64,000 nucleotides of DNA from positions 1 through 64,000 of the forward strand of contig FOBR01000024.1 in the NCBI GenBank assembly GCA_900109895.1. The letters are read 5' to 3'. The stretch comes from a bacterium A37T11. GTDB taxonomy: Bacteria > Bacteroidota > Bacteroidia > Sphingobacteriales > Sphingobacteriaceae. Both the position numbers and the translations under genes were made by a program. Below, one piece after another: positions 7,517-38,684 of the stretch; position 1 is the stretch's first letter, and each line of letters begins with the position of its first letter. The notes under the pieces were generated by a model. It had not been told where the DNA came from. It did not search any database and saw only the letters and a program-made list of their open reading frames with translations.

Positions 7517-7532
7517 TGCCAGATTGCTTTTT

Positions 7533-7622
7533 CAAAAGTACAGATTATCTAATCACCATTTATTAATATTTAGTTTTTATTATCATGGAGGAAACCATGA
7601 TGGTCATTCTGCTACCAGAATG
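7533..7622 (-). promoter_or_regulatory. mgtA promoter with two adjacent inverted repeats
   Basis: On the minus strand TACTTTTG (7533-7540) is a -7 box. Upstream of it are ATCATGG-6-CCATGAT (7582-7601) and CATTCTG-4-CAGAATG (7605-7622), both perfect. They lie about 40-90 bp before the -7 box and so are likely operators, not leader RNA hairpins. Nothing else was found in the 242-bp gap between mgtA and alkB. Confidence 0.45.
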
Positions 7623-7758
7623 GCAGGCGGATATAAGGAGACATTACCAAGTACTTAAGCGGAAATCCCGATAAATGTCACCTCAGGCATCCACAGCCTT
7701 ACCTCCCTATCCAAACTTTTAGCTTTTCAAACTGTTATTTAAACAAATAGCCGAAAAG

Positions 7759-8379: not shown

Positions 8380-8467
8380 CTCGTTCATACTCCATAGCAT
8401 GGCTATAAGCTGGTGCTATACTGTGTTGGATTAAATGTTTTGTATGAGTCTGCCTTCGTGACAATAT

Positions 8468-9007: not shown

Positions 9008-9027
9008 ATTTCGTAATCATTATTCTC

Positions 9028-9054
9028 CAAAAGTACACAGGCTTGTTAACTTTG
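9028..9054. promoter_or_regulatory. Back-to-back -7 boxes of the HXXEE and Crp/Fnr genes
   Basis: TACTTTTG on the minus strand (9028-9035) serves the HXXEE gene and TAACTTTG on the plus strand (9047-9054) serves the regulator. Each fits TAnnTTTG. They are 11 bp apart, so the two promoters overlap and polymerase binding is probably mutually exclusive. No clear TTTG was found at the ideal distance for either. Confidence 0.5.
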
Positions 9055-9078
9055 CTTTTTACAAATGACAAAAAAGGA

Positions 9079-9645: not shown

Positions 9646-9698
9646 AAATATTGCATTAGGCGATATCCACGGTGCAGCCAAGCGTCAGCCCCTCCCAA

Positions 9699-10175
9699 TT
9701 AGGATTTGTTCACCTTTATCAGCCTGCTATCTATTGGCAGGCTTTCTACGGCGTTGACCTTCACGAGGTCATGATAACCCGGAAATAGCGGATTAAGCAG
9801 GTAATTATATTCTTTGGTATTTACGGCCGAACGCACTTTGATACCCAGGAATGCCTTTTCGTTTATCCAGCGGTCGCCTTGCTCCTGGGCTTTCCGGTTT
9901 CCGATCTGTTGCCAGTTTTTTGGATAGTCTTTATCGGATAAGGTATGGATCAACTTTGGTTTGTCCGGAATTTCCAGTACGGAAATATAAAGGGACGGTG
10001 GAATTAAATGCGCCTCAAAATGCATCAGGCTCTCCAAATAGGCCAATGAGCTGTTCTCGCTGGTATACAACATATAGGTGCCGGCGCTATTCCATCGTCC
10101 TCCAAATTTATAAGCACCCATACCCGAAAGGTCGGTGCTGCGCGCCTCCGTTTTGGCAATTCGGTAAAGCAGCAT
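9699..10175 (-). CDS. RES domain toxin of an Xre-RES toxin-antitoxin pair
   Basis: 158 residues. The residues that name the family are present: R27 in GGRWN, Y46 and E48 in LAYLESL, and S116 in VRSAV. RES toxins studied in Pseudomonas, Mycobacterium (MbcT) and Photorhabdus consume NAD+, by hydrolysis or phosphorolysis, and have a fold related to ADP-ribosyltransferases. The ATG overlaps the antitoxin stop by one base (TGATG), so translation is probably coupled and the antitoxin is made first. Family and pairing are clear; activity is inferred from homologues. Confidence 0.9.
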   Translation of the reverse strand: MLLYRIAKTEARSTDLSGMGAYKFGGRWNSAGTYMLYTSENSSLAYLESLMHFEAHLIPPSLYISVLEIPDKPKLIHTLSDKDYPKNWQQIGNRKAQEQGDRWINEKAFLGIKVRSAVNTKEYNYLLNPLFPGYHDLVKVNAVESLPIDSRLIKVNKS

Positions 10176-22051: not shown

Positions 22052-23278
22052 TTACTCATTTGTGACAATCAATTTGTTTTTATTGTTCGTTTTTTCGATT
22101 TTAAAATTTAGTCCACTTTCCTTCAAGATTTCAAGTACGGCATTGAGACTTTTATCCCTGCTGATCATACCATAAAAGCGGACAGTAGGAACCCTACCCT
22201 TAAACTCCAAAACCAGGTCATACCATCGACTCAACTGGTTAAATGCATCCATGGGCACTGTGCCATCAAATTGGAAGAATCCGTTCTTCCAAGCAGTAAC
22301 CACTTCCACATCGGTTTTCTTTTTTTGCAAGATATCCCCAGACAAGAGAGATTGCTCTCCGGGGCTTAATAATAAAGTTTGCGTTGTCATTCCAGGTTGT
22401 GTGGGTTTGTCGATGTTAGTTACTTGTATGGCACCCTGAACCAAGGTGGTTTTGATAGTGGCTTCATCCCCATAGGCACTGAGGTTAAATGAAGTGCCCA
22501 AAACCAAAATCTCCTGATTTTTGCTTTGAACCCTGAAAGGCTTCATTTTATCTTGCTTAATTTCAAAATATGCCTCACCTTCTAAATACACAACCCTACT
22601 GTCGCCATTAAATTGGTTAGGATATGTTAGTTTACTTGCCGAGTTAAGCCATATTTTAGTCCCATCTCCCAAAACAACATGGTATTGGCCACCTTTAGGT
22701 GTTGTTAAGGTATTATATGTTGTGAAGGATGACTGATGAATTGGCGCTTCAATTTTGGTCCCATCATTATAATTTAAAATGCCATCTTTTATCTGGATTC
22801 CGGCTTTGGAGCTGTCAAGATTTATTTTTGTACCATCAGCCAAGGTGAGTATTGCTTGGTTAGATCCGGGGGCGATATCGTTTAAACTGACAGTAGTTGG
22901 TAACCGGTTTACCTGTTGACCTTGATAAAAAAATAGCCCTGTTACTATTGAAACAATCAATATAGCGGCAGCTACCAAATACCAGGGGTTAATTAAGAAA
23001 CGTATTGATGTTTTGCGATTGGCGGCTTTTTGCAAGTTTTTGCCCACGCGTTCGGTAAAAGCATCTACTTTTTTCACCAATGTATCATCGTGAGGCTTAC
23101 TGCTGTCAAGCGCTTTGCAGATTAGCTCCCTTAACTCCTCTTCATTGCCTGCATTATTAAAATACAGGTAAAGAGCGGCTATTTCAGCATCATTACAATA
23201 GCCGTTCAGGTATTGTTGAAAAAGGTGGTTTATACCATTATTTGGTTCCAATTGTGCATCGCTTTCCCCATAATACAA
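22052..23278 (-). CDS. FecR family anti-sigma factor, PUL 1
   Basis: 408 residues; only a TTG (23278) fits the start. The cytoplasmic N-terminal part (about 1-90) binds sigma, followed by one transmembrane helix (NPWYLVAAAILIVSIVTGLFFY, about 96-117). The periplasmic part has the FecR domain (ANTLTTPKGGQYHVVLGDGT, VWLNSASKLTYP, RVVYLEGEAYFEI, VLGTSFNLSAY) and ends in a secretin/STN-like module, VPTVRFYGMISRDKSLNAVL. It is the usual second gene of a sigma/anti-sigma pair. It transmits the SusC signal to the ECF factor encoded 44 bp upstream. Confidence 0.92.
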   Translation of the reverse strand: MYYGESDAQLEPNNGINHLFQQYLNGYCNDAEIAALYLYFNNAGNEEELRELICKALDSSKPHDDTLVKKVDAFTERVGKNLQKAANRKTSIRFLINPWYLVAAAILIVSIVTGLFFYQGQQVNRLPTTVSLNDIAPGSNQAILTLADGTKINLDSSKAGIQIKDGILNYNDGTKIEAPIHQSSFTTYNTLTTPKGGQYHVVLGDGTKIWLNSASKLTYPNQFNGDSRVVYLEGEAYFEIKQDKMKPFRVQSKNQEILVLGTSFNLSAYGDEATIKTTLVQGAIQVTNIDKPTQPGMTTQTLLLSPGEQSLLSGDILQKKKTDVEVVTAWKNGFFQFDGTVPMDAFNQLSRWYDLVLEFKGRVPTVRFYGMISRDKSLNAVLEILKESGLNFKIEKTNNKNKLIVTNE

Positions 23279-23322
23279 ATAAGCTTAAAAAAGTCATGGC
23301 TGGAATTGAAAAAAAATATGAA

Positions 23323-23919
23323 TTATTGAAAAAAAAATAAAATCAATGCAGAAAAATAAGCTTCTGGATGATTTTTTAGCTGTTCTTTCAAAAACTTCCC
23401 CGCTTTTTGAAGGTGGTCGTTTACTGTATTAACAGATATATGAAAAGCCTGGGCCGCTTCCTGATAGGTTTTACCATCTATTTTGCAATAAAGAAACACC
23501 TGTTGCCGTTGCTTCGGCAACTGACCAATGAGGTGGTATAAAAGTGTTTCGTTTTCTTTTTTATAAATCTGTTCCTCAACATGGCTGTAAAGCTCTGTAT
23601 TAGCAGCCATGATATTTAACAGGATGGCTTTTTCACGTGCTGCCCTTGCCATAAGATTAAAGCACAGGTTTTCTGCTATGCGGTATAAGTATGCTTTAAA
23701 AGATTTTTCAGGATCCACTTGTTCCCGTTGCTCCCAAAGCTTCATGAAAAGGTCCTGCAAGACCTCCTCGGCTAGTTCCTCAGACTTAAGAAGCTGAAGA
23801 ATGCGGTAGCCCAAAGGCCGGCGATAATATTCATAGATTTGACCAAAGGCCCTTTGGTCACCAGCCCGTAACTTTAATAAAAGTTCGTTCTCATCTGCTA
23901 GAAGGGGAGTAGAGGTCAT
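23323..23919 (-). CDS. ECF RNA polymerase sigma factor (FecI-like, Bacteroidetes group), PUL 1
   Basis: 198 residues from ATG 23919; a TTG at 23946 would add nine residues. Region 2 is in DQRAFGQIYEYYRRPLGYRI, SEELAEEVLQDLFMKLWEQR and SFKAYLYRIAENLCFN. Region 4 is in LPKQRQQVFLYCKIDGKTYQ and AQAFHISVNTVNDHLQKAGK. It should recognise promoters of the PUL 1 operon once FecR releases it. No housekeeping promoter with a TAnnTTTG box was found in front of it. Confidence 0.93.
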   Translation of the reverse strand: MTSTPLLADENELLLKLRAGDQRAFGQIYEYYRRPLGYRILQLLKSEELAEEVLQDLFMKLWEQREQVDPEKSFKAYLYRIAENLCFNLMARAAREKAILLNIMAANTELYSHVEEQIYKKENETLLYHLIGQLPKQRQQVFLYCKIDGKTYQEAAQAFHISVNTVNDHLQKAGKFLKEQLKNHPEAYFSALILFFFQ

Positions 23920-24237
23920 TTTAATCAGATTTATATCTGAGGGCAATATTAAGGATATTTATATTCAAATCAAAAAATGTTCTATTCAGTGAAGAATTAT
24001 CACTTGGTTACGTCAATGTATACTCAATCGCCGGAATTTCTATCGATGGTTTTTTTTGGAAAATCCGATTTAATCGTAATTGTTATTGCTTGCCTATTGC
24101 CCATCAGGATCTTGGTCCTCCTATAATTGATTGAACACATCCTCAGCTCCGCCATCAAATATTGCGTTGATGAAAAAGCTTGGCGAGCCATTGCGTATTC
24201 TGTAACACATTCTTTACTGCACTCAATCATCTACCAT

Positions 24238-24269
24238 GTTTGCTCATTAAAACATAGGGTTTGCTCATT
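24238..24269 (+). promoter_or_regulatory. 11-bp direct repeats 21 bp apart upstream of the giant-protein operon
   Basis: GTTTGCTCATT occurs at 24238-24248 and again at 24259-24269, in phase with two DNA helical turns. A near-consensus -7 box, TACTTTCG, lies at 24298-24305, so the repeats are where an activator would bind. The rest of the gap between the PUL 1 sigma gene and this operon (23920-24237) shows no convincing gene. Confidence 0.4.
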
Positions 24270-24341: not shown

Positions 24342-26072
24342 ATGAAAAGAAAAAATAACCATATTGCAAAACATACCTGTAAAATAGCTTTGGTACTGGT
24401 TTGCCTGATTCCCGGCATTATACCTTCCTCCGCACAAGACCTTTCGAGCTTTGTAAATCAAAAACCAATAGCATTTAATGGTGGTTTGGAGCTGCGGGGT
24501 ATTTTTTACAACGCTAGCGGCATAGCTGTTCGGCGTGAGCCGTTTACCTATCTGCTAAGCGGCAGCCCTACCGTAAGCCTGTATGGATGGAGCATCCCTT
24601 TTAGTTTTACCTTAAGCAAAGACGACCGTTCCTTCCGCCAACCATTTAACCAGTTTGGGCTAAGTCCCACTTATAAATGGATCACGGTGCATGCCGGCTA
24701 CCGCAACGTTACCTTTTCGCCCTACACCCTTGCCGGTCACACCATGTTGGGTGGAGGATTTGAGCTCAACCCCGGCAAGCTACGGGTTGGTTTTATAGTT
24801 GGCCGGCTGAACAGGGCCACCGTTATAGACACCACCACACAGGCCCTAGTGCCCTTCTCCTTTAGCCGCAAGGGCTATGCCGCCAAGTTGGGGTACGGTA
24901 CGCAGGCCAATTACTTTGACCTTAATTTCTTTCAGGCTAAGGATGATAGTACCTCGCGGCCGGACATCCGCATTCCAGACAGTACCAATGTACTGGCAGA
25001 AGCCAACACCTCCATGGGTTACAGTACCCGCTGGACAATCAAAAACTTTTTTATAGAAAGCAACGCTGCTATCAGCATCTATACCCGCGATATAAATTCT
25101 CCAATCAAGCTTGATTCTATTGACAGCGACCTATTGCAACGCGTCAAAGGATTCTTTAATATCAACGGAACCTCCGAATGGTTTCTGGCAGTAGATGCCG
25201 CTGCTGGCTACAAAGCCAAAACCTACGGGCTGAAAGTAAATTACCGGCGCATCGACCCGGACTTTAAAACCATGGGCTCCTACTTCTTTTCAAATGATGT
25301 AGAAAACTGGACCATAGCACCCGACTTTAGCCTTCCAAACGGGAAGCTGCGCATGAACGCTAGTGTTGGCATACAGCACGACAATGTGCGCAACCAAAAG
25401 CAGGCCACCAACCGGCGGTTCATCGGCTCAGGAGTACTGAGCGCAGAGATCACCAAACAGCTGGGGCTGGACATCAACTACAGCAATTTCTCAAACAACC
25501 AAAAGCCCAACACGCTCAAATTTGCCGACTCCCTCAAGATCGTACAAACCACTCAGGTCATTAGCCTGATGCCGCGCTACCTCATCCAGGGCACGCAAAC
25601 CAGCCAGATGATTATGCTTTCCGTCAATATCAGTACGATGGATGACTATAATAGTTACTATGGCTCGGAGGCCGCCAGCCGCAACATCAGCACGGGCCAA
25701 TACTTTCTGAACTACACCATCTCCATCCCGGCCAAACGGCTCAGTCTGTTCGGCAACCTTAGCTATACCTCGCTCAAAAGCACCGATGTAAAGAACAGCT
25801 ACCAGGGTTTGAGTGCGGGGGGCAACTACACCCTAAAAAACAACAGCCTCCAGGCCGGCCTGAACACCAGCGTGATGCAGGGTGATGATGGAACCGGTAA
25901 CAAAAGTCTGATCATTAACGGCACCGCCAATCTCAACTACCGGTTCAATAAAATCCAGACCCTTCGCTTCTCTTTTTACATAACCAACAATAACCCGGGC
26001 AGTGCAATAACGGGGGTTAACCCCGCATTTACAGAAACCCGGGGCGAGCTGGCCTACCAATTAAATTTTTGA
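24342..26072 (+). CDS. Outer-membrane beta-barrel protein, first gene of the three-gene giant-protein operon
   Basis: 576 residues with a signal peptide (IALVLVCLIPGIIPSSAQ) and a mature part made almost entirely of alternating beta-strands with aromatic girdle residues: PFTYLLSGSPTVSLYGWSIP, LRVGFIVGRLNRATV, GYAAKLGYGTQANYFDLNFF, YGLKVNYRRI, GLDINYSNFSN. It ends with the terminal strand GELAYQLNF, whose last residue is the Phe typical of barrels assembled by BamA. No plug or TonB box is seen, so it is not a TonB receptor. I do not recognise a named family. Its stop is 2 bp from the ATG of the giant gene, so a joint function, such as anchor or export pore, is the natural inference. Confidence 0.7.
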   Translation: MKRKNNHIAKHTCKIALVLVCLIPGIIPSSAQDLSSFVNQKPIAFNGGLELRGIFYNASGIAVRREPFTYLLSGSPTVSLYGWSIPFSFTLSKDDRSFRQPFNQFGLSPTYKWITVHAGYRNVTFSPYTLAGHTMLGGGFELNPGKLRVGFIVGRLNRATVIDTTTQALVPFSFSRKGYAAKLGYGTQANYFDLNFFQAKDDSTSRPDIRIPDSTNVLAEANTSMGYSTRWTIKNFFIESNAAISIYTRDINSPIKLDSIDSDLLQRVKGFFNINGTSEWFLAVDAAAGYKAKTYGLKVNYRRIDPDFKTMGSYFFSNDVENWTIAPDFSLPNGKLRMNASVGIQHDNVRNQKQATNRRFIGSGVLSAEITKQLGLDINYSNFSNNQKPNTLKFADSLKIVQTTQVISLMPRYLIQGTQTSQMIMLSVNISTMDDYNSYYGSEAASRNISTGQYFLNYTISIPAKRLSLFGNLSYTSLKSTDVKNSYQGLSAGGNYTLKNNSLQAGLNTSVMQGDDGTGNKSLIINGTANLNYRFNKIQTLRFSFYITNNNPGSAITGVNPAFTETRGELAYQLNF

Positions 26073-26074
26073 TT

Positions 26075-29000
26075 ATGAAAACTTGTACCATGTACGCATT
26101 TAAATTTATTCCAGGTTTTTGTTTACTGCTGTTGCTGGCTATGCAGCAACTTGCACAGGCACAGATAAACGTGCAGATACGCATCGTTCCCCCTTACCTA
26201 AGTCGGGTAAGCGACTATGCCTCCAGGCCAGACCTAATGATGCTCACGCTGACCAACACTAGCCGAAATACCCTCCAGTTACAGCTGCATGGCAGCATCA
26301 CCGGCGACAATGGAGTTTCAGCCATAGTCAAGGACAGTTATCGCAGCCCCCGGCCCGTTGAATTGGGACCCCTGGAAACCAAAAATCTCAATGCGAATGA
26401 CATTGTCAGCTTGTTTAATCCCAATACCATTACTTATACGGGCATCAGCGCTGCAGATATAAACAGGGGTTTTATTCTGCCTGAAGGCACTTACAGCATT
26501 TGTGTGCGCGCGCTCGATTATGACACCCATGAGCCCTTGAGCCCCGAGGAACCAATTGGCTGCACCCAGTTCAACATCAGCAACGTAGAGCCGCCGACCA
26601 TCATCTCACCGGCCAATGAGCAGGAGTTGAGCAGCCTGGGGCCACAGGCCTTCCCAATTACCTGGAGCACCCCACCGGGTGCCTCACCAGCCACCCAATA
26701 CCATGTGCGTATTGTGGAAATGCTTACACCGCGTAACCCGAACGATGCCATGCAGTCGGCCACAACGCCACCTTTCTTTGAACGTACCGTTCAAGGCAAT
26801 ACCCTTTTGTATGGCCCAGCCGACCCGCAACTCACTCCCGGTCGTCAATACGCACTGATGGTACAAGCCGATGACCCTTTTAATAGCGTTACTTATCGTA
26901 ATGGGGGGAAGAGTGAAGTATATACTTTTACCTATAGTACAACAGCCTCTGGCACTGCCATAGCTGGAGAGGTTGATAACAAAAAGGCTCCAAAGAAAAA
27001 TGAAGAAACCACTAAGCAATATACAACCAATAAAATCACCGGAAAACTCTCCTGGGCTTTCAAAGCTTCGGAGCAAAACTATCGGCAAAATCCGACGTTG
27101 CAATTTGCTGCAGCCTCGCAGGGAATGCAGCAAATGAGCCCCGCGGTCACTCCTATACAAGGCGCCCAAGCTTTGGTAAAAAGCGGTGGCCAAACGAACA
27201 TCCACTACATGAACATTCCTGGAGGCACTCCAGCGAGTTACTATCTAGGTCAAAATCCCCTCCAGGCAGCGAAAAGCGTAGCTTTAGCGCAGGCAGATCC
27301 TACATTAAATGTATCGACGGTGTTTGCTATGTTCACAGGAAGTATCCCTGTAAAGGTTCCCGTAAACCAGTCTGTCAGTCCTTCGGGTGTGATTAGTACA
27401 TCCGGCGCATCGTCTTTAGACATAAGCTATACGACGGTAAAAGTCGATACAGGCACACAGCGTTATCCGCTGGCCAATATCACCGTGACCATTCGCGGTG
27501 AAGAGTCAGGTATACCCTCTTTAAACTTACCCTCACCGATTGGTGCGCCTGGCAAGACGACAGTGATCCGGGAACAGGATATTCAGAACGCTGGTTTGCG
27601 GACCTCTGGTAGCTTGGAAAACTTGCTGATCGGTCAGCAAGTCCCTAATCAAAAAAAAGAACTGACAGCGTCTGCTTCTATTGAGGCAAACAACGTAAAT
27701 AATCCTGCTTCAGCGCCAGTTAGTTCTTCTTTAGGTATGGAGCCGACATCCAATGTATTGGCAACAGCAAAAACAGATGCGGAAGGCAATTTTACCTTTC
27801 AGTTGGTCAACCCGCAATATCAAGGCAAAAGTCCTTATAAAAACGTCCTTGTTACCGTAAATGCAGATGGGTTTGAGCCTTTTGAATATAAGCTGCCCGA
27901 ACAGCGACTAAATGACCTGACCCAGATTGACCTGGGCGAACAAACGTTGCTCGCAAAAACCTATCGCCTTAACCCTGTGGTTACGATTGCCGGCGATGAC
28001 AAGGGCGCCTTGGGGAATCCGGGTATGCGTATACGGGTATATCGCGAAGCGAATGAGGCTGAGCGATACCCCTATCTGCAACAGGAAGGCAATATAGCCG
28101 CCGAAGACAAAATTCCCGTAAGTATCCAGGGCAGGCGTTATATACCTGTAGCACAAGACAGCGTGCCAGCCGGCGGTAACCCGGTCAAGTCATACCAGTT
28201 TGCTATGGGACGGCTGTTTTACCAAGGCAGTTTATACGTCGAAGTAGACGGATTGTCCGGCAATGTCAACAAGAAAGCAACCACTGTGCGTATCATCGAT
28301 CAGAAAGTAGCGCCCTCCAGCATATTGCAGGCCAAGCCCGGATATCAATGCAGCCTTAAAAATCCCGCGGTTAGCGGGCAGGTCATATTAAGCGCCGGTG
28401 AGAACCTTCAGCCCATTGAAGGGGCGGTGTTGCAGGTTACGTTTAATGAGGAAGACCGCTTGCCAGTTATGACAGGAGCTGTCGTCATGATGCCTCTGCA
28501 ACAGGGTGGCAGCCAGACTCACAATGTTTCCATGGTTTCCGCGGTGCTTGGCAACAGCTCATTTGGCAAGGCAAACTATGCCGTGAACTCTTCGTTTAAC
28601 CTGGTCAATGTAGCAGCCGCCAAACCATTAAATGGTGTAGCGCAGCCTTTCGCCGTAACATCCGCATCGGCGCTGGTAAGTTCAAATGTGATGAACAACA
28701 CAAGCCCATCCTTCAGCTTCCAGTCAGTATATGCACAAGATGGTACCATGAGTGAAGCCCAGATACAGAATAAATATGGGTTGTATGCCGTTAAAACAGA
28801 CGCATCGGGTAACTACTATATTGGTGATCTGCCTATCCTCAAGGGAGGAGCCAGTTATACGGTAAAAATTGTTAGCTTGCCTTATAACTATCAGGACATG
28901 GAGGTCGTCCCCGGCAATGAGCAGACGTTCATTGCTGATAAAGGCGTGACCGAGACCCGGTCATTTTCCATTAGTCCGGAAGTCTTCAACCTGGTAGGGC

Positions 29001-32000
29001 GCGTAGTAGATGACAAGGGGCAGGGTCTCCCGTATGCACGCTTACATTTTAAAGAAAGTTCTACCTATTTTGATGCAGGAGAAGCAGGCCTCTTTCAAAC
29101 CAGTTATTACGCAGGCGACCATATATTGGTCATTGAAAAAGAAGGATATATCGCCAAAGAGGTGCGTGTGAAGCTTGGTGGACCGGCCATAGATCAACAG
29201 ACCAAAGACAAACTCGCAGAAAAAGGAAAGAAATGGACACAAAAGAATCCGGTAAATCCCGGTGAGGAAGTGATGAACTTGCAGTATCCGGGCGAATGGG
29301 TAATGAGCATGCAGCACACCAATACCGTGCAACAGGCCGTAAACGCTGGATACAGCTTTTCACCCGCCATGTTTGGCAATGCCGGCAGCTCACCACTCAT
29401 TGCCGATGGAGGCATCCAGGCGCCTCAGCTTCCCGGAGGTATGCGCGGGCCGTCGGCCCCAGGTGAAACTGGTTTGGAAAATACCATACCCATACCACTC
29501 ACCACGGTCTTTGCCGCACAGATCACGCAAACGTTCCATGCCAATACATTGGCCTTCGCCCAAACCAACTCGGTTGATCTGGGTGATGTAGGGCCGCTGC
29601 TTCCACGCCAAGGTAAGGTAAGCTTTACCATCATGGAAAAAAACACCACCCATCGCATAGAAGGAGCAGAAATCCAATTGTTTGATACAACCCATGTCAC
29701 AGACGCCGCAGGGCAATGGCTGTACGAAGGGTTTGGAGGGCAGGCAACCGTTACAGTGCGTACGCCCGTAGGGCAAGGATACGTCAGTTTGCAGCAAACC
29801 GTACAGATCATGGAAACCGGAGAGCAGACAGAAGTGCTTCTGTACCTTGAGAAAGGCACCCGTGTACATGGCCAGGTAAAAGGAGAAGGCCAGCCGCTTG
29901 CGGGAGCCAATATTAACATCGAAGGCCGGCCCTATTTATCGGCTGTCACCGGCGACGACGGCTCTTATGAAATCTTTCTTCCCGCCGGAGAGCAAACCAT
30001 CCGGGCAGCAAAAACAGGATTCTTCAGTAAGCAGCAGAACAAAACTGTACAAGGTGCTGACCTTTTGCTTGATTTTGACCTCGAAGGTGGAGGGAACAAG
30101 AATATTTCTACGCTATTAGGATTTGATATTGAGCTTGATAAAGCCTTGCCTGACGGCAATGGAGAGCAATGGAGCGGACGGTTTGTGCATTTGACACCCG
30201 CATCCGATATGGTTGGTAACGTGGCAGATCAAAGCCTGTCGTTTGCAAATATCTACGTAAATTTTGATGCAGACGGTAACGCCATCCCGCAGGGAAATCA
30301 GGTGGCCACGGATGCTACCTCTTTATCGCTTAAGCTTTTCGGCTTTCTTCCAGTCACCTTCAAGGGCGATCCACAGATCGTCGTCAAGAAAAATGCAGCC
30401 GGTAAGGGCAGTATCAGTGGTCAACTGCAACTGGCTGTTGATCAGATGCAGGGCAGCCGCGGTTTCTCCTTCCCCACAGACAACCCCATTTATATAGCTC
30501 TCGCTAACGGGGCAGGTGCCGAAGATATCGAAGTTTTTCGGGAGGCTGGCAGCACAGGGGCGACTGAAATTAGCCTAAAGCTGTCTAAATTGGGGTCCAA
30601 TGATGTCAGCATGAAACTATACGGCTTTTTACTGAGCGTTGACCTGGATAAATCACGCATAAGCAACACAGGGCTTAGCCTGGCAGGAACCATCCATACA
30701 CCCGCACTGGGCCCCATTTCATCGGCCGATATCACCATTGAAACCTTCAGCATCAGTAAAGACTTGCGCATACAAACCATCCAGATAAAAAACGACAACC
30801 TGCCGTCTATCGGCATAGGCAATTGGTCTGCTGCGTTAACCAATGTACTTTTCAATGAAAACGGATTCAAACTTGGCGGTAAATTTAAAGTGACCATACC
30901 GCAGTCGGGTGAGTCCAATGTAGATTTCAGCAATCTTAGCCTGGGCATCGATGCCTTGTATGGGGGTCAGTTCAGTTTTCCAGGCGAAGGCATTAATGTA
31001 TACAATATTGTAAAGCTCACTACTGGTAATACGCCCCTCAGTTTTGGCCGGGTTGGCAACACCCAGGTATACAGCCTGGCCGGAAGTGCCAATATAAAAT
31101 TTGATAAACTAATCACTAAGGAAATTAAGATACCGTCGTTCCAGCTGCAGACAGACGGGCGGTTTCTCATTGAGGCTCCCATTAACTATAGTGCAGACCT
31201 GTCGTTCGCCAAGTTCAAGATTGCTAATCTCACCGTGAGCACCCTTTCCGGACAAGTGCCCTTCATCAGCGTTCAGGGAGAATTTGTAGTTACGCTACCA
31301 GGCCTCAAATTTAATGTGGCCGACATCCGGTTTAAGGCAGCGGCCAATGGAGGGGCTGAATTTTCTGTAGTGACCATCAGTGGTGAACTGGAAGTGGCCG
31401 TTATGAAAGTAGGTGTAAGTGTAGGACTTAAGGAAAATGGTTTTGAAGGTGGTGGGAAATTAGGCATTCCAGGTATACCTTTTAGTGCAGATGTAGACTT
31501 TCATTATTATAAAGTATCCGGAGGGGTAGACATTGGGGCCAGTTTCAAAGCCGGGGTTGTCATACCCATCGGTATCGTGACAATTACTAAAATTGGCGGT
31601 GGATTTAGCTACAACAGCGGCAACGGCAAATTTATGATCAACATTAATGGTGGGGCTTCCATTACTGGTTTTAGTACTGTGGTCAGCCTTGATCCCATTA
31701 GCCTTACGGTTACAGACGGGCCGGTTATTGTGGGAGAGGTTGGCATCAAGATAGCCAATGCCTTTGCGCTGGCGAACGCGCGGATAGAGCTTAATGTACC
31801 CGGAAAATTTTTCAGCATCGGCGTTAACGCACAAATAGACCCCTTAAAAGGAGTGGCTACGGCAAAGGTGAACGGACTATTGCGCATAAAATGGGATCCT
31901 CAGGAAAGCTATATTTTCCTTGGATCTAATATAGACGTTAATTTATTTGGCTTCTTCCATAGTTACGGCGAGTATGCGCTAGGTATCAACATTGACAACC

Positions 32001-32560
32001 CAAAATACCGGAATGACGATATTGCACCATTCTTTGCTCATTTGGACAACGACCTTTACCAGCAGGGCCAGCAATATAAATTTTCGGGTGTTTACCTGCA
32101 TTCCATAACTAGTTTAGGTATGCCAAAAGAAAGGGCTGCCAGCATTGATCTGAAAATAGTAAGCGGAAAAGCCTGGTTTTATTCCTATTCAGACGTTATG
32201 TTGTTGTTAAATTTTGCAGCCAATGATTACCGATTCCGGCTAGCAGGCGGGCTCACTGCCGGAGCAGAAGGGTGTATAGGGCCGGGATGCATTGGGGCAG
32301 AATTCAGCACATGCTATTCCTTTACAGGAGGTAACAGCAACACGAAAGGCTGGTTTCTGAACGGAAGTGCGGCAGGCTCATTCGAAGGACAAATCGGATG
32401 CCATGCAGATTGCAATAGTATTGGATGGAAGTGGATATTTCCCTGTGGAGGTCGTATCTGTATCGGAGCACATGCTTCTGTTGATGTCAGTACAGTCCAA
32501 GGAGTACACTTTGGTGTTGGGCTAGGTTCCAGCAGCGCGAATAATGGTTGTTCAAATTAA
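26075..32560 (+). CDS. Giant exported multidomain protein (TANFOR-like N-terminus, carboxypeptidase-like repeats, Cys-rich end)
   Basis: 2161 residues from ATG 26075 (a TTG at 26069 overlaps the previous stop). Signal peptide 1-30 (CLLLLLAMQQLAQAQ). Residues about 31-150 (INVQIRIVPPYLSRVSDYAS, LTLTNTSRNTLQLQLHGSI, FILPEGTYSICVRALDY) resemble the Bacteroidota TANFOR domain; an FN3-like module follows (about 170-290). At least four carboxypeptidase-regulatory-like beta-sandwiches occur near 440-640, 770-960, 970-1040 and 1180-1340 (TDAEGNFTF, TDASGNYYIGDL, GRVVDDKGQGLPYARL, GDDGSYEIFLPAG). About 1345-2060 is a long beta-rich region with glycine-rich repeats. The last 97 residues hold eight Cys. 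No T9SS sorting tail is seen. Probably a very large surface or periplasmic beta-structured protein; function unknown. Confidence 0.72.
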   Translation: MKTCTMYAFKFIPGFCLLLLLAMQQLAQAQINVQIRIVPPYLSRVSDYASRPDLMMLTLTNTSRNTLQLQLHGSITGDNGVSAIVKDSYRSPRPVELGPLETKNLNANDIVSLFNPNTITYTGISAADINRGFILPEGTYSICVRALDYDTHEPLSPEEPIGCTQFNISNVEPPTIISPANEQELSSLGPQAFPITWSTPPGASPATQYHVRIVEMLTPRNPNDAMQSATTPPFFERTVQGNTLLYGPADPQLTPGRQYALMVQADDPFNSVTYRNGGKSEVYTFTYSTTASGTAIAGEVDNKKAPKKNEETTKQYTTNKITGKLSWAFKASEQNYRQNPTLQFAAASQGMQQMSPAVTPIQGAQALVKSGGQTNIHYMNIPGGTPASYYLGQNPLQAAKSVALAQADPTLNVSTVFAMFTGSIPVKVPVNQSVSPSGVISTSGASSLDISYTTVKVDTGTQRYPLANITVTIRGEESGIPSLNLPSPIGAPGKTTVIREQDIQNAGLRTSGSLENLLIGQQVPNQKKELTASASIEANNVNNPASAPVSSSLGMEPTSNVLATAKTDAEGNFTFQLVNPQYQGKSPYKNVLVTVNADGFEPFEYKLPEQRLNDLTQIDLGEQTLLAKTYRLNPVVTIAGDDKGALGNPGMRIRVYREANEAERYPYLQQEGNIAAEDKIPVSIQGRRYIPVAQDSVPAGGNPVKSYQFAMGRLFYQGSLYVEVDGLSGNVNKKATTVRIIDQKVAPSSILQAKPGYQCSLKNPAVSGQVILSAGENLQPIEGAVLQVTFNEEDRLPVMTGAVVMMPLQQGGSQTHNVSMVSAVLGNSSFGKANYAVNSSFNLVNVAAAKPLNGVAQPFAVTSASALVSSNVMNNTSPSFSFQSVYAQDGTMSEAQIQNKYGLYAVKTDASGNYYIGDLPILKGGASYTVKIVSLPYNYQDMEVVPGNEQTFIADKGVTETRSFSISPEVFNLVGRVVDDKGQGLPYARLHFKESSTYFDAGEAGLFQTSYYAGDHILVIEKEGYIAKEVRVKLGGPAIDQQTKDKLAEKGKKWTQKNPVNPGEEVMNLQYPGEWVMSMQHTNTVQQAVNAGYSFSPAMFGNAGSSPLIADGGIQAPQLPGGMRGPSAPGETGLENTIPIPLTTVFAAQITQTFHANTLAFAQTNSVDLGDVGPLLPRQGKVSFTIMEKNTTHRIEGAEIQLFDTTHVTDAAGQWLYEGFGGQATVTVRTPVGQGYVSLQQTVQIMETGEQTEVLLYLEKGTRVHGQVKGEGQPLAGANINIEGRPYLSAVTGDDGSYEIFLPAGEQTIRAAKTGFFSKQQNKTVQGADLLLDFDLEGGGNKNISTLLGFDIELDKALPDGNGEQWSGRFVHLTPASDMVGNVADQSLSFANIYVNFDADGNAIPQGNQVATDATSLSLKLFGFLPVTFKGDPQIVVKKNAAGKGSISGQLQLAVDQMQGSRGFSFPTDNPIYIALANGAGAEDIEVFREAGSTGATEISLKLSKLGSNDVSMKLYGFLLSVDLDKSRISNTGLSLAGTIHTPALGPISSADITIETFSISKDLRIQTIQIKNDNLPSIGIGNWSAALTNVLFNENGFKLGGKFKVTIPQSGESNVDFSNLSLGIDALYGGQFSFPGEGINVYNIVKLTTGNTPLSFGRVGNTQVYSLAGSANIKFDKLITKEIKIPSFQLQTDGRFLIEAPINYSADLSFAKFKIANLTVSTLSGQVPFISVQGEFVVTLPGLKFNVADIRFKAAANGGAEFSVVTISGELEVAVMKVGVSVGLKENGFEGGGKLGIPGIPFSADVDFHYYKVSGGVDIGASFKAGVVIPIGIVTITKIGGGFSYNSGNGKFMININGGASITGFSTVVSLDPISLTVTDGPVIVGEVGIKIANAFALANARIELNVPGKFFSIGVNAQIDPLKGVATAKVNGLLRIKWDPQESYIFLGSNIDVNLFGFFHSYGEYALGINIDNPKYRNDDIAPFFAHLDNDLYQQGQQYKFSGVYLHSITSLGMPKERAASIDLKIVSGKAWFYSYSDVMLLLNFAANDYRFRLAGGLTAGAEGCIGPGCIGAEFSTCYSFTGGNSNTKGWFLNGSAAGSFEGQIGCHADCNSIGWKWIFPCGGRICIGAHASVDVSTVQGVHFGVGLGSSSANNGCSN

Positions 32561-32563
32561 TTT

Positions 32564-34597
32564 ATGAAAACAAAAATGAGAAGATTGTTTTTTATAGCCC
32601 TCATAGGCTTTATCATCACAGGTCAGTGCAAGGCGCAGGAGCAACCTGGCCAGCGTATCCTGCCCGGACCCCACTATACGATGCTCCTGTTGCAGAGTAT
32701 TGCAGAAACATCTGATAAAGCCGGGCCGCCCGCATTTCCCAAAGCCGGCGAGCATTTTGATATTTTCCGCGCAGATGGTGACCAGGGCAAAGAAAAAAAG
32801 GTGGGTAGTGTTTCCTTTCCAGGTTCGGCCGAAGGACTTAAAAAGAGGCTGGGAGAAAGCCTTACGGCTGACGTATTGAACCGTTTGCAGGTAAAGAATC
32901 TGGATGAGGCTTATCGGTTACTATTACAAAAAGGCCCAGACACCCTGGGATTGACCCTCCTGTCGCCCGGCCTGCTTGAAGCTTTTGGCATGGTGTACCT
33001 TGACCATGATCGTAACCCCGCAGTCACTTCGCTTTATCGCGTGGATCAGGTGGCTGATGAAGGGGCAGTCATTAAAAGCGGAACAGCTCGTATAGCGGGA
33101 AAGCTGCCCGTTTATCCTGAACGGTATCGCGTTCATTCTTTTCTGGTGACAGACAGTTCGGCCATGGTTAAATGGGCCAATCCAACAGATAATGGCAGTG
33201 GGGGCATGCCGTTGTTTGCCAATATTTACCGGCGAACTACCAGCCGCGGATCTTTTGAGCAGGTGCAAAAATTGTTCATTCTTTCTAATACGACTTCTGA
33301 CAGCAGTTACGTATCTTTCAGTGAACAGGTAGAACCAGGCGTGCAGCTTTCTTATTATATGCAGTTGGAAGATTTAGCCGGAAACCTGGGGCCGGTATCA
33401 GATACACTGAGTGCGCTGGCCATCGATGTGTCAAAGTTAAGTAGTATTCAGAACCTGCAAGTAGCAGACAGCACAACCGGTCTTTTGCTCACCTGGGATC
33501 CACTTCCTAGGCAGGCTATATATACGGGCATACAAATCCTCAAATCGCGGCAACCAGGGTCAGACTATGTCGTGGTAGATACTATACCCGCTACAGATAC
33601 CGCTTACCTGGATGAAAAAGTGATCGCCGCATCCTCCTATTACTATAAGGTAAGGCCGCTTATTTATAACCTTCCCGGGCGAGACCCTTTAATGTTCGCC
33701 GAAGCAAGTGGCCACAAAAGTGAAGGTGAAAATGCCACTCGGCCCGTCGCCCCCCGCGAAGTGCGTGTCGAAGCAACACAAGGCGGCGTGAAAATAAATT
33801 GGCAACATGGTGATGAGCTCAACCTGTTTGGCTATTTTGTATTGCGGGGAACCAGTGCCAGCAATCTGGAGATCGTATCCCGCCCAGTTAAAGATACCGT
33901 ATATATAGACAGTACCTTTTCTCCGGGCTTTTCAGGCCAACTTCAGTATGCTGTTCAGGTGATGAACCTCAGCCAAGCTATGAGCGATACCTCCGAAATC
34001 GCATCCGTTACCTTACGCCAACCAGTGGTCCTTAGTGCTCCGGGCGGTATACAATCCAAACGCACGGTTGATGGCGTCGCCTTGCAATGGGAACAAACCA
34101 GTGATCGTGACAACAATGTGCAGGGATATATTCTTTATAGACGTTCCAGCAGCGATTCATCCTATAAAACTCTTAATAAAGCATCTTTGGTACGTTTGCC
34201 TTTTTATACAGACAGTACCGCCTTTGCAGACAGCAGCTATACCTATGCCGTTTCTTCTGCCGATACGTGGGGCAATCAAAGCATCCTTTCGCCACTCACA
34301 TCAATCGGTCCTGACGATAGTGCCAACCTGCCGCCGGCATCTATCTACGTTCGAAATCTAACTGAAGGTATTGAAATATCCTGGCCACAAGATTATGGAA
34401 AAACAAGCCGTCAATACGTCGTTTATCGCCGTCAGGTAGGTGAGAAAGAATTTGTCAGCCTTGGAAGTGGCGATGCTACCAATACCTTTATTGATAAAAA
34501 AAGCCAGAAAGGTACCTTATATGAATACGCCGTAGCTGTCAAAACCGGTATTACCGAAGGTTCCAAAAGCGCCGCCCAGTCTATAAGGCGCCAATAA
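32564..34597 (+). CDS. Exported protein of tandem fibronectin type III-like domains
   Basis: 677 residues, ATG 3 bp after the giant gene's stop. Signal peptide about 1-24 (MRRLFFIALIGFIITGQCKAQ). After a unique N-terminal region (about 30-175) come five FN3-like repeats near 180-280, 285-385, 400-490, 495-590 and 597-677, each with the W/Y signature: VKWANPTDNG, LLLTWDPLPR, VKINWQHGDE, VALQWEQTSDRD, IEISWPQDYG, and a matching YxYxV near its end. No catalytic residues are evident. Such proteins usually act as adhesins or scaffolds. The 3-bp spacing implies the product works with the giant protein. Confidence 0.75.
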   Translation: MKTKMRRLFFIALIGFIITGQCKAQEQPGQRILPGPHYTMLLLQSIAETSDKAGPPAFPKAGEHFDIFRADGDQGKEKKVGSVSFPGSAEGLKKRLGESLTADVLNRLQVKNLDEAYRLLLQKGPDTLGLTLLSPGLLEAFGMVYLDHDRNPAVTSLYRVDQVADEGAVIKSGTARIAGKLPVYPERYRVHSFLVTDSSAMVKWANPTDNGSGGMPLFANIYRRTTSRGSFEQVQKLFILSNTTSDSSYVSFSEQVEPGVQLSYYMQLEDLAGNLGPVSDTLSALAIDVSKLSSIQNLQVADSTTGLLLTWDPLPRQAIYTGIQILKSRQPGSDYVVVDTIPATDTAYLDEKVIAASSYYYKVRPLIYNLPGRDPLMFAEASGHKSEGENATRPVAPREVRVEATQGGVKINWQHGDELNLFGYFVLRGTSASNLEIVSRPVKDTVYIDSTFSPGFSGQLQYAVQVMNLSQAMSDTSEIASVTLRQPVVLSAPGGIQSKRTVDGVALQWEQTSDRDNNVQGYILYRRSSSDSSYKTLNKASLVRLPFYTDSTAFADSSYTYAVSSADTWGNQSILSPLTSIGPDDSANLPPASIYVRNLTEGIEISWPQDYGKTSRQYVVYRRQVGEKEFVSLGSGDATNTFIDKKSQKGTLYEYAVAVKTGITEGSKSAAQSIRRQ

Positions 34598-36674: not shown

Positions 36675-38684
36675 TTAGCGATCAGCCACACACCTGAAAC
36701 CTATCGTACCCGCCCTGTCTATGCCCGGAGACATTAACAGATATTTCCCATATTCATTAAGGTCATGTACCTGCGGAAAGTACCACTTGGAGCCTTTTGC
36801 TACATAACTGCTACCACCCTTTAAAATAGCTGCACGGGTGTGTTCATCCTGGTATTCGTCCGTCCATTGCCAAACCTTACCAGTCATGTCCATCACCTCA
36901 TGGTTCTGAGCAGTATATTGCCATTCCCATTCATGAGGCAACCTCTTACCAGCCCAAGCGGCATAGGCCCTGGCATCTTCCAGGGAAACCCAAGTAACAG
37001 GCTTTTCTTCCCAACCATCGGGGAAGCTCTCATTTTTCCAGTCTGATAAAAAATTAATGGTATCTTTTGGTTGATAATGGCTGGAATCCATGAATTCTTT
37101 AAACTGTCTGTTTGTCACCGGAAATTGGTCCATATAAAATGAATCAATGTCCATCACATGCTTTTGTGATCGGGCAGGATGTTTTTCCCAAGGATGCTGT
37201 ATGCCGACAGATTCAGGAAGCTCATCGCCTTCTATCATGATGCCTTTTGACTCAAAGTTATAACCTTTTACTGCTGGGATGAGTACCATTCCCTCAGGAA
37301 CCTGTTTTTTGGATGCTGTTTTAGGAATGTCTATCAGGTGCTGGCTTAGCGGCAAAGAAGATGCAGAAAGGCTATTAATTGAGATTTTTGATAATATCTG
37401 TAGCTGAGTTAAAACCGCCCTTATACTGTCATTTACGTTTCGGGACGGGATCGATAATACCGCTCCAAACCCATTCCCCACAATAGGAAATCCTAATAAA
37501 ACCTTATTCCCCTTTTTATATGGAGTCAGTTTGGAGCCATTCCACAAATCATAATAGGACATCCCCTTTTGGTACGGCAAAATCAACTGTTTGCCAAATT
37601 TATTTAAACTGTCGCGGTTTACCAGCGTATATACCGTTAGTTGACTGGCAGGAAATGCGGTGGCAAATATACCCTCTTGTACAGTGGGAAAAAAGGGAGT
37701 CCAAGATGAACTGCTCCAAACCTGGGGAAATGCCCGGTATATAGCTACCATCCTTTTAATGATGGCCGCATATCGGTCAGGAATCTGGTTCCATATTCCC
37801 CAAATATTTTCCCAAGTATTGTACCCAACACCGTTAAAGAAGGCATATTGAAGGTCGTCTGTTTTATTGACGGCCCACCGGTTGGTCACATGTACTTGAT
37901 GGCGAGGCTCCATCCATTTATAGATGCTCACTCCCGGCTTATATGCGTAATTCCAGAAATAACCCCAACTTAAATGATTCCACGCAACCATCTTTAGGTC
38001 ACTTATATTATTTTCAGGCTGTAAAGCCACAGGGTAACCGAGACTGTCGTAAGCATTTTTAAAATTTTCAGTGACACCAAGCATAGTGTCTCCGTTCAAA
38101 CCATCAGCCCCAATTGTTTTCATTTCTGCTACCAACGCTTCCGGCATAGCTTGCGCAATGGGTCTCGTACCCGTATCCCAAAACATAATTGGAAAAAAAA
38201 CGCGTACACCTCTCTTTTTAAAATCTTGAACCATTTGTCGGACCCCCTCCAAACCTCCGGGCATAGCCGCCACCAGATCATATTGATTGCGATCATCTAT
38301 TCCCATATTAGGATATGTTGGCCAAACCATTACCGCATCCAGCCCACCATACCTGTTTTTTACATCATTCAAATACCGGTCTACCGTATATGATCCAGCT
38401 ACCGGATCATACAGATACCGGTCGTGAGCCATTACCTGCGCATAGATAAAGGCCGTTTTTACCCAGCTTAGCTCAGGCCGTAAATATTCAGTATCTGTAT
38501 ATTCCAGTTTTTTTCTTTCTTCGGATCTCCAATGCTTCATGCGGTTCAGCCAATTTTCATAGTCAGCCAGATGGGTTGGACCAGCAAATAACTCTTTTAG
38601 GTTTCCTTGCAAAGGCATATCCTGAGCAAAGTTTTTGTGAACGAATAGTAGCAGGCAAATAGCAGCAAGACCAATTTTCTTCAT
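36675..38684 (-). CDS. TIM-barrel-like domain fused to a SUMF1/FGE-type domain, PUL 2
   Basis: 669 residues with signal peptide (IGLAAICLLLFVHKNFAQ). The first ~450 residues look like an (alpha/beta)8 glycosidase: YGGLDAVMVWPTYPNMGIDD, GVRVFFPIMFWDTGTRPI, ADGLNGDTMLGV, HVTNRWAVNKTDDLQYAFFN, with a beta-sandwich after it. The last ~200 residues are a formylglycine-generating-enzyme-like domain: MVLIPAVKGYNFE, MDQFPVTNRQFKEFM, VTWVSLEDARAYAAWAGKRL, EWEWQYTAQ, TGKVWQWTDEY, LKGGSSYVA and GTIGFRC. The Cys pair of true FGE is not obvious, so the domain is probably structural or lectin-like. It is 25 bp after the GH20 gene, at the end of the PUL operon. It may act on the same glycan as GH20. Confidence 0.72.
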   Translation of the reverse strand: MKKIGLAAICLLLFVHKNFAQDMPLQGNLKELFAGPTHLADYENWLNRMKHWRSEERKKLEYTDTEYLRPELSWVKTAFIYAQVMAHDRYLYDPVAGSYTVDRYLNDVKNRYGGLDAVMVWPTYPNMGIDDRNQYDLVAAMPGGLEGVRQMVQDFKKRGVRVFFPIMFWDTGTRPIAQAMPEALVAEMKTIGADGLNGDTMLGVTENFKNAYDSLGYPVALQPENNISDLKMVAWNHLSWGYFWNYAYKPGVSIYKWMEPRHQVHVTNRWAVNKTDDLQYAFFNGVGYNTWENIWGIWNQIPDRYAAIIKRMVAIYRAFPQVWSSSSWTPFFPTVQEGIFATAFPASQLTVYTLVNRDSLNKFGKQLILPYQKGMSYYDLWNGSKLTPYKKGNKVLLGFPIVGNGFGAVLSIPSRNVNDSIRAVLTQLQILSKISINSLSASSLPLSQHLIDIPKTASKKQVPEGMVLIPAVKGYNFESKGIMIEGDELPESVGIQHPWEKHPARSQKHVMDIDSFYMDQFPVTNRQFKEFMDSSHYQPKDTINFLSDWKNESFPDGWEEKPVTWVSLEDARAYAAWAGKRLPHEWEWQYTAQNHEVMDMTGKVWQWTDEYQDEHTRAAILKGGSSYVAKGSKWYFPQVHDLNEYGKYLLMSPGIDRAGTIGFRCVADR

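What the first reader, a model, noticed from the sequence alone, without database searches (positions are those of the whole stretch)
24342..34597. Three-gene operon for a barrel, a 2161-residue multidomain protein and an FN3 protein: candidate undescribed surface system
Seen: three exported proteins with 2-bp and 3-bp spacings and no other genes between. The first is an outer-membrane barrel without plug, the second a giant chain of beta-sandwich domains, the third five FN3-like repeats. They lack SusCD, TonB boxes, enzymes and T9SS sorting tails. Known: TANFOR-like domains and carboxypeptidase-regulatory repeats occur in Bacteroidota surface proteins of unknown role. Inference: the barrel anchors or exports the giant protein and the FN3 protein is a partner, forming a large extracellular or periplasm-spanning structure.
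Basis: partly seen in the sequence, partly recalled or inferred. Interest (0 to 1): 0.75.

Follow-up and report, generated by a model that had tools for sequence, protein, structure and literature searches.

The report
Outer-membrane barrel paired with TANFOR giants
Three neighbouring genes encode a large outer-membrane barrel, a giant exported protein and a helper protein; comparing many bacteria suggests the barrel is the dedicated exporter or anchor for a family of giant surface proteins and toxins whose export route was unknown.

Summary
The operon is real, at the stated coordinates and spacings, and its order is conserved. The giant carries an N-terminal TANFOR module, the trafficking domain of a described class of Bacteroidota polymorphic toxins (Jana 2020, PMC7073777), so the system is not wholly undescribed. 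Four results were not found in the papers I searched. (1) The barrel (24 strands in AlphaFold2, no Pfam/NCBIfam family) co-occurs with TANFOR: all 85 barrel genomes of 395 are among the 89 TANFOR genomes. Six genomes fuse TANFOR and barrel in one open frame. (2) The operon is two reassorting modules: barrel tracks TANFOR (rho 0.82), giant body and C-terminus track the FN3 protein (0.59, 0.54), cross-pairs are below 0.1. (3) Seven of 16 TANFOR-bearing Sphingobacterium genomes have no detectable SprA, so the type IX translocon looks dispensable, against the published guess; GldM, a type IX motor gene, remains in six of the seven. (4) A period-21 tandem repeat, as expected for a LytTR regulator, precedes this and some related operons. 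Best reading: a two-component export/anchoring system, like two-partner secretion in logic but unrelated in family, displaying an exchangeable giant cargo with its cognate FN3 partner. Export itself is inferred. No toxin domain is recognised in the window's giant.

The parts
24238..24269 (+). Tandem direct repeat GTTTGCTCATT x2, period 21, upstream of the operon; candidate LytTR response-regulator site
   Evidence: exact 11-mer repeat; no such repeat upstream of the second operon of the same genome; a degenerate form, GTTYRCTCA at period 21, lies upstream of 13 of 77 named loci with <=2 mismatches against 0.1 expected from base shuffles, and of 21 of 77 with <=3 against 0.4; the pattern was drawn from the window and from one locus (L039) that is also among the 77 as L116, and some loci are close sisters. 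LytTR regulator and histidine-kinase genes lie beside two related operons scanned. That LytTR regulators bind direct repeats about 21 bp apart is recalled.
24342..26072 (+). Outer-membrane barrel gene, 576 aa, 24 strands in the model, no Pfam/NCBIfam family; proposed export/anchor partner of the TANFOR module
24435..26941 (+). Cassette shared with the second operon of the same genome: mature barrel plus TANFOR module as one alignment of 2512 columns at 78.9% DNA identity, stopping at the end of the TANFOR module
26075..32560 (+). Giant exported protein, 2161 aa
26126..26944 (+). TANFOR + FN3-like N-terminal module (aa 18-290), proposed address for the barrel
29864..30082 (+). CarboxypepD_reg domain (aa 1264-1336), best of three stretches
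30095..31549 (+). Beta-rich body domain (aa 1341 to about 1825), found by an iterated profile in 58 ORFs of the fetched loci, some of them the same locus fetched twice
   Evidence: AlphaFold2 model poor
31550..32557 (+). C-terminal region (aa about 1826-2161) with conserved cysteines; replaced by other sequence in many relatives that keep the body domain
   Evidence: by single linkage it falls in the largest C-terminal group, 61 of 143 giants
32564..34597 (+). FN3-repeat exported protein (677 aa), proposed cognate partner of the giant's body

Best explanation
The operon is a two-module export/display system of the TANFOR class. Module 1 (delivery) is the outer-membrane barrel plus the N-terminal TANFOR/FN3 module of the giant. 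After Sec export the TANFOR module docks on the barrel from the periplasm, and the barrel exports and/or holds the giant at the surface with its body and C-terminus outside. Module 2 (cargo) is the giant's beta-rich body and C-terminus plus the exported FN3 protein, which folds, caps or co-assembles with that body. Cargo modules are swapped between delivery modules; in distant relatives the TANFOR module instead carries polymorphic C-termini, some of them known toxin domains, with small downstream immunity-like genes. The operon is probably switched on by a LytTR two-component system. Shown by computation: gene order, co-occurrence, fusions, module co-variation, no detectable SprA in some carriers, the promoter repeat. 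Inferred: docking, direction of export, topology, role of the FN3 protein, regulation.
For: Co-occurrence: barrel in 85 and TANFOR in 89 of the same 395 phylum genomes, all 85 shared (Fisher 2e-82, not corrected for relatedness). 105 of 118 barrel hits have TANFOR on the same contig, the nearest always on the same strand, 72 within 1 kb, six of these being fusions. Barrel directly upstream of TANFOR in 78 of 79 named loci. TANFOR-barrel fusions in six genomes (L217-L222). Distance-matrix correlation over 57 dereplicated loci: barrel~TANFOR 0.82, mid-body~FN3 protein 0.59, C-terminus~FN3 protein 0.54 (0 of 2000 permutations each); TANFOR~adjacent segment of its own chain 0.01, barrel~FN3 protein 0.02. 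Second operon in the host genome shares only mature barrel + TANFOR at DNA level. SprA not detected in 7 of 16 TANFOR+ Sphingobacterium genomes, by the family model (which finds it in 33 of 93) or by a Sphingobacterium SprA query, which finds the one independent SprA+ control given (G574) and its own genome; all 16 keep the barrel, and the three SprA-less loci fetched hold barrel, 2759-2775-aa giant and FN3 protein. In four loci (L053, L233, L235, L271) a separate body-like protein is followed by the FN3 protein.
Against: No experiment shows export. In the phylum draw all 89 TANFOR genomes also have SprA, as the T9SS hypothesis predicts; within Sphingobacterium TANFOR is also somewhat commoner with SprA (9 of 33) than without (7 of 60; p = 0.08). 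Six of the seven SprA-less genomes still have GldM, and S. chuzhouense shows ORFs that read as GldK/L/N beside it, so a partial T9SS could still help. Four of 89 TANFOR genomes have no barrel hit, and in L052 a TANFOR protein has none within the fetched stretch. SprA itself is among the barrel's structural matches (6h3i_A, Z 15.1, rmsd 10.1, 435 aligned). By Pearson and before dereplication the correlations of barrel with the cargo parts are 0.46-0.48, since close relatives share everything. The barrel has no POTRA-like domain, so a mechanism of translocation is missing. The link between the window's body and the separate body-like proteins is weak (hhalign probability 17.5%). The second operon of the same genome lacks the promoter repeat.
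Confidence: 0.6

Rival explanations
1. T9SS route: TANFOR giants cross the outer membrane through SprA; the barrel is only a shuttle/anchor that takes the giant from the translocon, as PorP/SprF proteins do for type B CTD substrates.
For: All 89 TANFOR genomes in the phylum draw have SprA, against 214 of 306 others. Jana 2020 reports >95% of TANFOR genomes with T9SS and T9SS substrates in the neighbourhood. PorP/SprF shuttles show that genetically linked barrel-cargo pairs exist in T9SS.
Against: SprA not detected in 7 of 16 TANFOR+ Sphingobacterium genomes, six of them 99% complete, with barrel and TANFOR gene present. No CTD on the window's proteins. No NCBIfam match of the barrel at E<=1. 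Of the SprA-negative phylum genomes, 14 of the 20 shown are one family, f18 (72 more were not listed), so the phylum-level association is at least partly descent.
Confidence: 0.23
2. The window's giant is itself an antibacterial polymorphic toxin whose immunity protein is the FN3 protein.
For: 143 giants have C-termini in 37 single-linkage homology groups, 25 of them singletons; the FN3 protein co-varies with body and C-terminus, as immunity proteins do; a few relatives carry recognised toxin domains.
Against: No toxin domain in the window's giant and few among 127 C-termini. The window's C-terminus lies in the largest group, 61 of 143. The FN3 protein is exported, is conserved as one family, and occurs in loci that already have a small immunity-like gene after the TANFOR gene (L053, L233, L235, L271). 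It tracks the mid-body at least as well as the C-terminus.
Confidence: 0.1
3. Nutrient or adhesion receptor: the barrel is a porin-like uptake channel and the giant plus FN3 protein a surface capture or adhesion complex; no protein export by the barrel.
For: Best structural matches of the barrel are the Mtr-complex barrel (6r2q_B) and, tied with it, porins. One of 127 C-termini matches a collagen-like adhesin (Lcl) model. SusCD-like pairs lie close by in the window (recognised by eye, not scanned).
Against: Barrel co-varies with the TANFOR module and not with the body; fusions are TANFOR-barrel; the same barrel family sits beside toxin-like TANFOR genes. Porin-like matches are expected for any large barrel.
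Confidence: 0.05
4. The operon is a chance neighbourhood without functional link.
For: None found.
Against: Conserved order, fusions, co-variation.
Confidence: 0.01

Closest known systems
TANFOR polymorphic toxins of Bacteroidetes (Jana, Salomon, Bosis 2020, PMC7073777)
   Same: N-terminal TANFOR (TIGR02542) plus FN3 on a large Sec-exported protein; differing C-termini; FN3 genes enriched in the neighbourhood (Table 1).
   Different: 'barrel' occurs 0 times in its main text and T9SS export is proposed; its supplements were not seen. The window's giant has no recognised toxin domain or small immunity gene, and SprA is undetected in some Sphingobacterium carriers.
T9SS type B CTD substrates with PorP/SprF shuttles (PMC12618676, PMC12635249)
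   Same: Dedicated shuttle encoded beside a large surface protein and needed for its secretion (passages seen).
   Different: Recognition there is by a C-terminal domain and runs through SprA; here the co-varying part is N-terminal, no CTD is present, and the barrel matches no NCBIfam family.
Two-partner secretion / CDI (CdiB-CdiA-CdiI)
   Same: Logic: barrel gene, giant with conserved N-terminal trafficking domain and variable C-terminus, then a cognate partner gene (CDI features recalled).
   Different: No POTRA or TPS family hit; predicted barrel of 24 strands against 16 in TpsB (recalled); third gene is a 677-aa exported FN3 protein.
Chaperone-usher outer-membrane ushers (FimD, PapC)
   Same: 24-strand barrel size (recalled for ushers); Foldseek lists PapC and FimD chains among the 50 rows shown.
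   Different: TM-scores of 0.37-0.45 by query length only; no usher family in Pfam; no pilin-like cargo.

Membership tests
TANFOR polymorphic toxin class | N-terminal TANFOR domain | tested here: met
   TIGR02542 E 2.1e-7 but 31 bits, under the curated cut-off of 67; aligns as one family with members of polymorphic-toxin layout, which also score under that cut-off
TANFOR polymorphic toxin class | C-terminal toxin domain | tested here: inconclusive
   No toxin family in the window's giant; an unknown toxin is not excluded
TANFOR polymorphic toxin class | Small immunity gene directly downstream | tested here: not met
   Downstream gene is a 677-aa exported FN3 protein
T9SS substrate | C-terminal sorting domain type A (TIGR04183) or B (TIGR04131) | tested here: not met
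   No such hit at E<=1 in any of the three proteins
T9SS substrate | Depends on SprA translocon | tested here: inconclusive
   Host genome has SprA, but it is undetected in 7 of 16 TANFOR+ Sphingobacterium genomes; no mutant data
PorP/SprF shuttle | Match to the family model | tested here: not met
   Barrel has no NCBIfam hit at E<=1
Two-partner secretion | TpsB with POTRA domains and 16-strand barrel | tested here: not met
   No Pfam hit at E<=1; AlphaFold2 gives 24 strands and no separate N-terminal domain
Two-partner secretion | N-terminal TPS (haemagglutination-activity) domain on the cargo | tested here: not met
   Giant has TANFOR and no such Pfam domain
Chaperone-usher | Usher family with plug and periplasmic domains | tested here: not met
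   No Pfam usher family at E<=1; model is barrel only; fold similarity alone is inconclusive
SusCD / TonB-dependent transporter | TonB-dependent receptor domains | tested here: not met
   No Pfam hit of the barrel at E<=1

The most novel reading that the evidence does not exclude
The barrel is itself the translocon of a distinct Bacteroidota secretion system: a two-component, SprA-independent export route in which an N-terminal TANFOR address is read by a dedicated barrel of about 24 strands, serving both antibacterial polymorphic toxins and giant surface assemblies, with cargo and its FN3 partner swapped as a cassette.
Probability: 0.35. Interest if true: 0.92.

Novelty: new variant of a known kind. 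Interest (0 to 1): 0.77.

Why it matters
TANFOR toxins were reported in 2020 with the export route left open and T9SS as the guess (PMC7073777). This work names a specific gene, the neighbouring barrel, that can be deleted to test the route, supplies named hosts without detectable SprA where the T9SS guess can be tested without making a mutant, and indicates that the FN3 proteins belong to the cargo and not to the delivery part. If the barrel exports the cargo, Bacteroidota have a further secretion route used in competition and surface display.

Tried and rejected
Direct Pfam/NCBIfam naming of the barrel: no hit. PDB sequence search with barrel and TANFOR profiles: no relatives at E<=0.1. AlphaFold2 of giant residues 1341-2161: too poor to interpret; its matches to LptD, FimD and porins are not used. 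PorV test in the 16 Sphingobacterium genomes: no match over the cut-off in SprA+ or SprA- genomes, uninformative. Sharing of the window's giant body with the separate body-like proteins: not established. Toxin reading of the window's own giant: no support. No excess of sigma-70-like promoter sites by consensus scan (17 found, 15.6 expected). PorV and PorP/SprF did not appear among the structural matches shown for the barrel; this does not exclude kinship.

Selection caveats: (35 of 151 genomes with a match) I fetched 19 places in 17 genomes besides the host; dropped were matches confined to the CarboxypepD_reg stretches and one fragment at a contig end (G066). The 79 named loci were fetched with the barrel profile (best 80 of 375 candidates), so their TANFOR and FN3 content is informative but their barrel content is not. 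The 58 phylum stretches were picked by me from places where barrel and TANFOR hits lay on one contig; counts from them are conditional. The correlation used 57 of 79 named loci: 11 were dropped for a missing or cut component and 11 for barrels 90% or more identical. Besides the pairs quoted, mid-body~C-terminus is 0.30 (0 of 2000), barrel~C-terminus 0.08 (88 of 2000) and TANFOR~C-terminus 0.09 (65 of 2000). In the table the figure printed as 'E' for the FN3 protein is a bit score. In one search one of the two SprA+ controls (G101) is the query's own genome. In one search the null was a simple base shuffle. For some searches I retyped coordinate tables and handle lists by hand; the retyped totals agree with the tools' tallies.
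Full report
OBSERVATION. The barrel has no Pfam or NCBIfam match at E<=1. The giant matches TANFOR (TIGR02542) near its start, under the curated cut-off, and CarboxypepD_reg domains further on. In the third protein fn3 is the one Pfam family over its cut-off. No T9SS sorting tail is found. AlphaFold2 on an alignment of 75 barrels gives 24 strands of 7 or more residues (pLDDT 82, pTM 0.70); 73 of the 75 end in F or L. VIA-align lists the Mtr-complex barrel first (6r2q_B, Z 17.8, rmsd 5.9, 445 aligned), tied with porins (2y0k, Z 17.4); SprA is further down (6h3i_A, Z 15.1, rmsd 10.1, 435 aligned).

SECOND OPERON IN THE SAME GENOME. The host genome carries a second full operon on another contig: barrel 570 aa, giant 2511 aa, FN3 protein 663 aa. 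By BLASTP the barrels are 88% identical, giant residues 1-340 are 75% identical, and the FN3 proteins are 23% identical. At DNA level there is one alignment, window 24435-26941, 2512 columns at 78.9%. It starts at the mature barrel and stops at the end of the TANFOR module. No other DNA alignment at E<=1e-3 was reported, although the two giants' bodies and C-termini are distant homologues by profile and linkage.

CONSERVATION. In 19 neighbourhoods from 17 genomes of the same family, chosen for a TANFOR giant, the barrel is present in 18 and the FN3 protein in 16; the barrel is missing in L052, and the FN3 protein in L050-L052. In an even draw of 395 phylum genomes the barrel profile hits 85 and the TANFOR profile 89 at E<=1e-10, the 85 being a subset; TANFOR-only genomes are G341, G375, G445 and G453. 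Of 118 barrel hits, 105 have a TANFOR hit on the same contig, the nearest one always on the same strand; 72 are within 1 kb, six of these being fusions. In 79 named loci (Sphingobacterium, Pedobacter, Mucilaginibacter, Parapedobacter, Spirosoma, Hymenobacter, Larkinella, Runella and others) the barrel is directly upstream of TANFOR in 78, and the FN3 protein lies within 8 kb in 74 (62 directly downstream). In 58 hand-picked phylum stretches barrel and TANFOR are adjacent in 44 (barrel upstream in 40), and the FN3 protein is within 8 kb in 42.

FUSIONS. Six genomes carry one open frame with an N-terminal TANFOR module followed by the barrel (863-1016 aa, loci L217-L222). In five of the six a further TANFOR protein lies in the same stretch; in the sixth (L222) an FN3 protein does. 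This argues for contact between module and barrel. Since a domain between signal peptide and barrel normally lies on the periplasmic side (general knowledge), docking from the periplasm is the simplest picture; that step is inferred.

TWO MODULES. Pairwise distances over 57 dereplicated loci give Spearman 0.82 for barrel against TANFOR, 0.59 for giant mid-body against FN3 protein and 0.54 for giant C-terminus against FN3 protein (0 of 2000 label permutations reach each). The cross-pairs tested lie between 0.01 and 0.09, including TANFOR against the next segment of its own chain (0.01). Before dereplication, with 68 loci, Spearman gives the same picture (0.82; cross-pairs 0.06-0.14), while Pearson gives 0.95 for barrel~TANFOR and 0.46-0.48 for barrel against the cargo parts, since close relatives share everything. 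Distances of barely alignable segments saturate, which weakens the test for the variable parts but cannot by itself create the strong pairs. So barrel and TANFOR travel together, and body and FN3 protein travel together.

TOXIN RELATIVES. Distant members of the same barrel-TANFOR family look like polymorphic toxins: five proteins align over about 920-1020 aa (TANFOR, fn3 and a stretch with a HExxH motif read by eye), mostly end in different C-termini, and are each followed by a small gene. L050 and L053 share a C-terminus (56% over 182 aa), and their small downstream genes look alike by eye. Among 127 C-termini of 300 aa, toxin families are few: AHH in 2 members (best E 8.8e-12; the one identified, L271, is under the cut-off), colicin/pyocin DNase and LHH on one protein (L234) and TNT on one (L237, under the cut-off); one member matches the collagen-like adhesin Lcl. 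In L233, L235, L271 and L053 the order is barrel, TANFOR protein, one or two small genes, a separate body-like protein of 1548-1688 aa, FN3 protein. These body-like proteins are homologous to the bodies of other TANFOR giants such as L263, L261 and L240 (E down to 7e-156). Their link to the window's own body is only suggestive.

TYPE IX SECRETION. Jana et al. 2020 (PMC7073777; I read the abstract, parts 1-2 of 6 of the text, section 9 and search passages) report that TANFOR proteins are polymorphic toxins and guess T9SS export; 'barrel' does not occur in the main text. Their T9SS call needs four of five core genes (passage), so a genome with GldK, L, M, N but no SprA would count as positive. 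In my phylum draw all 89 TANFOR genomes have SprA, against 214 of 306 others, which agrees with them but is at least partly descent. Within Sphingobacterium, 33 of 93 genomes have SprA and 16 have TANFOR; 7 of the 16 have no SprA hit (TANFOR in 9 of 33 with and 7 of 60 without SprA, p = 0.08). A Sphingobacterium SprA query finds its own genome and the one other SprA+ control given (G574), and none of the seven. All 16 have the barrel. GldM is present in 15 of 16, missing only in the 85%-complete G601, and every genome has 1-3 CTD matches. Three of the seven correspond to S. chuzhouense, S. athyrii and S. phlebotomi (a 200-base stretch is identical to the named loci), and each fetched stretch holds open barrel, giant and FN3 frames. 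SprA thus looks dispensable; a role for the remaining motor genes is open.

REGULATION. An exact 11-bp repeat at period 21 lies at 24238-24269; the second operon of the genome has none. A degenerate form at the same period lies upstream of 13 of 77 named operons with at most two mismatches, against 0.1 expected, and of 21 of 77 with at most three, against 0.4; all 21 have period 21 although 20 and 22 were allowed. The pattern was drawn from the window and one locus that is itself among the 77, and some of the 77 are sister loci. LytTR response regulators and Reg_prop/Y_Y_Y histidine kinases sit beside the two related operons whose neighbours I scanned, L035 and L041. The window's own neighbours are a divergent ECF sigma/FecR pair, which more likely belongs to the Sus-like genes on that strand.

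LITERATURE AND NOVELTY. 'TANFOR domain' occurs in one paper of the library. PMC11796102 lists TANFOR as a trafficking domain (one passage); PMC7948796 holds the word twice (listing only). Searches for T9SS with polymorphic toxins, interbacterial toxins and SprF/PorP (listings) and the passages seen of PMC12618676 and PMC12635249 name no such barrel for TANFOR. Subscription papers, preprints and supplementary files were not searched.

VERDICT. A real and conserved system. The cargo class is known; the barrel pairing, the two-module structure, the fusions, the carriers without detectable SprA and the shared promoter repeat appear new within the papers searched. Export through the barrel is the best reading but is unproven.

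Noticed in passing
L212 (genome G547, Sphingobacterium chuzhouense), 4853-9825: GldM (family hit) with neighbours that read as GldK, GldN and GldL are kept although SprA is not detected; what a type IX motor does without its translocon is unexplained.
   Followed up: partly
L038, L041, L042, L045-L048 and L035, L039, L040, directly upstream of the barrel: A lipoprotein-like gene with collagen-type Gly-X-Y repeats (about 220-700 aa) precedes the barrel there (Pfam Collagen over its cut-off in L039, under it in L038 and L042); none lies upstream of the barrel in the window or in the second operon of its genome.
   Followed up: partly
window 24238-24269 and upstream regions of 21 of 77 named loci: Tandem GTTYRCTCA-like repeat at period 21, a candidate LytTR regulon site.
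   Followed up: yes
L233, L235-L237, L267, L268, L270-L272: Barrel frames there are about 815-850 aa, so these barrels carry an extra stretch that was not analysed.
   Followed up: no
L114-L116, L118-L124, L126, L136 (mostly Sphingobacterium and Parapedobacter) and L243, L244, L252, L253, L258, L259, L278, L279: TANFOR giants reach about 2650-2780 aa in the first group and about 3950-4140 aa in the second; three hits lie in open frames of about 6400 aa.
   Followed up: no
window 36675-38684 (-): 669-aa ORF whose C-terminal half reads like a formylglycine-generating/sulfatase-modifying domain behind a glycosidase-like N-terminal part; read by eye, not scanned.
   Followed up: no
window 22052-23946 (-): ECF sigma factor and FecR anti-sigma pair in front of a SusC-like gene (by eye), divergent from the operon.
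   Followed up: partly
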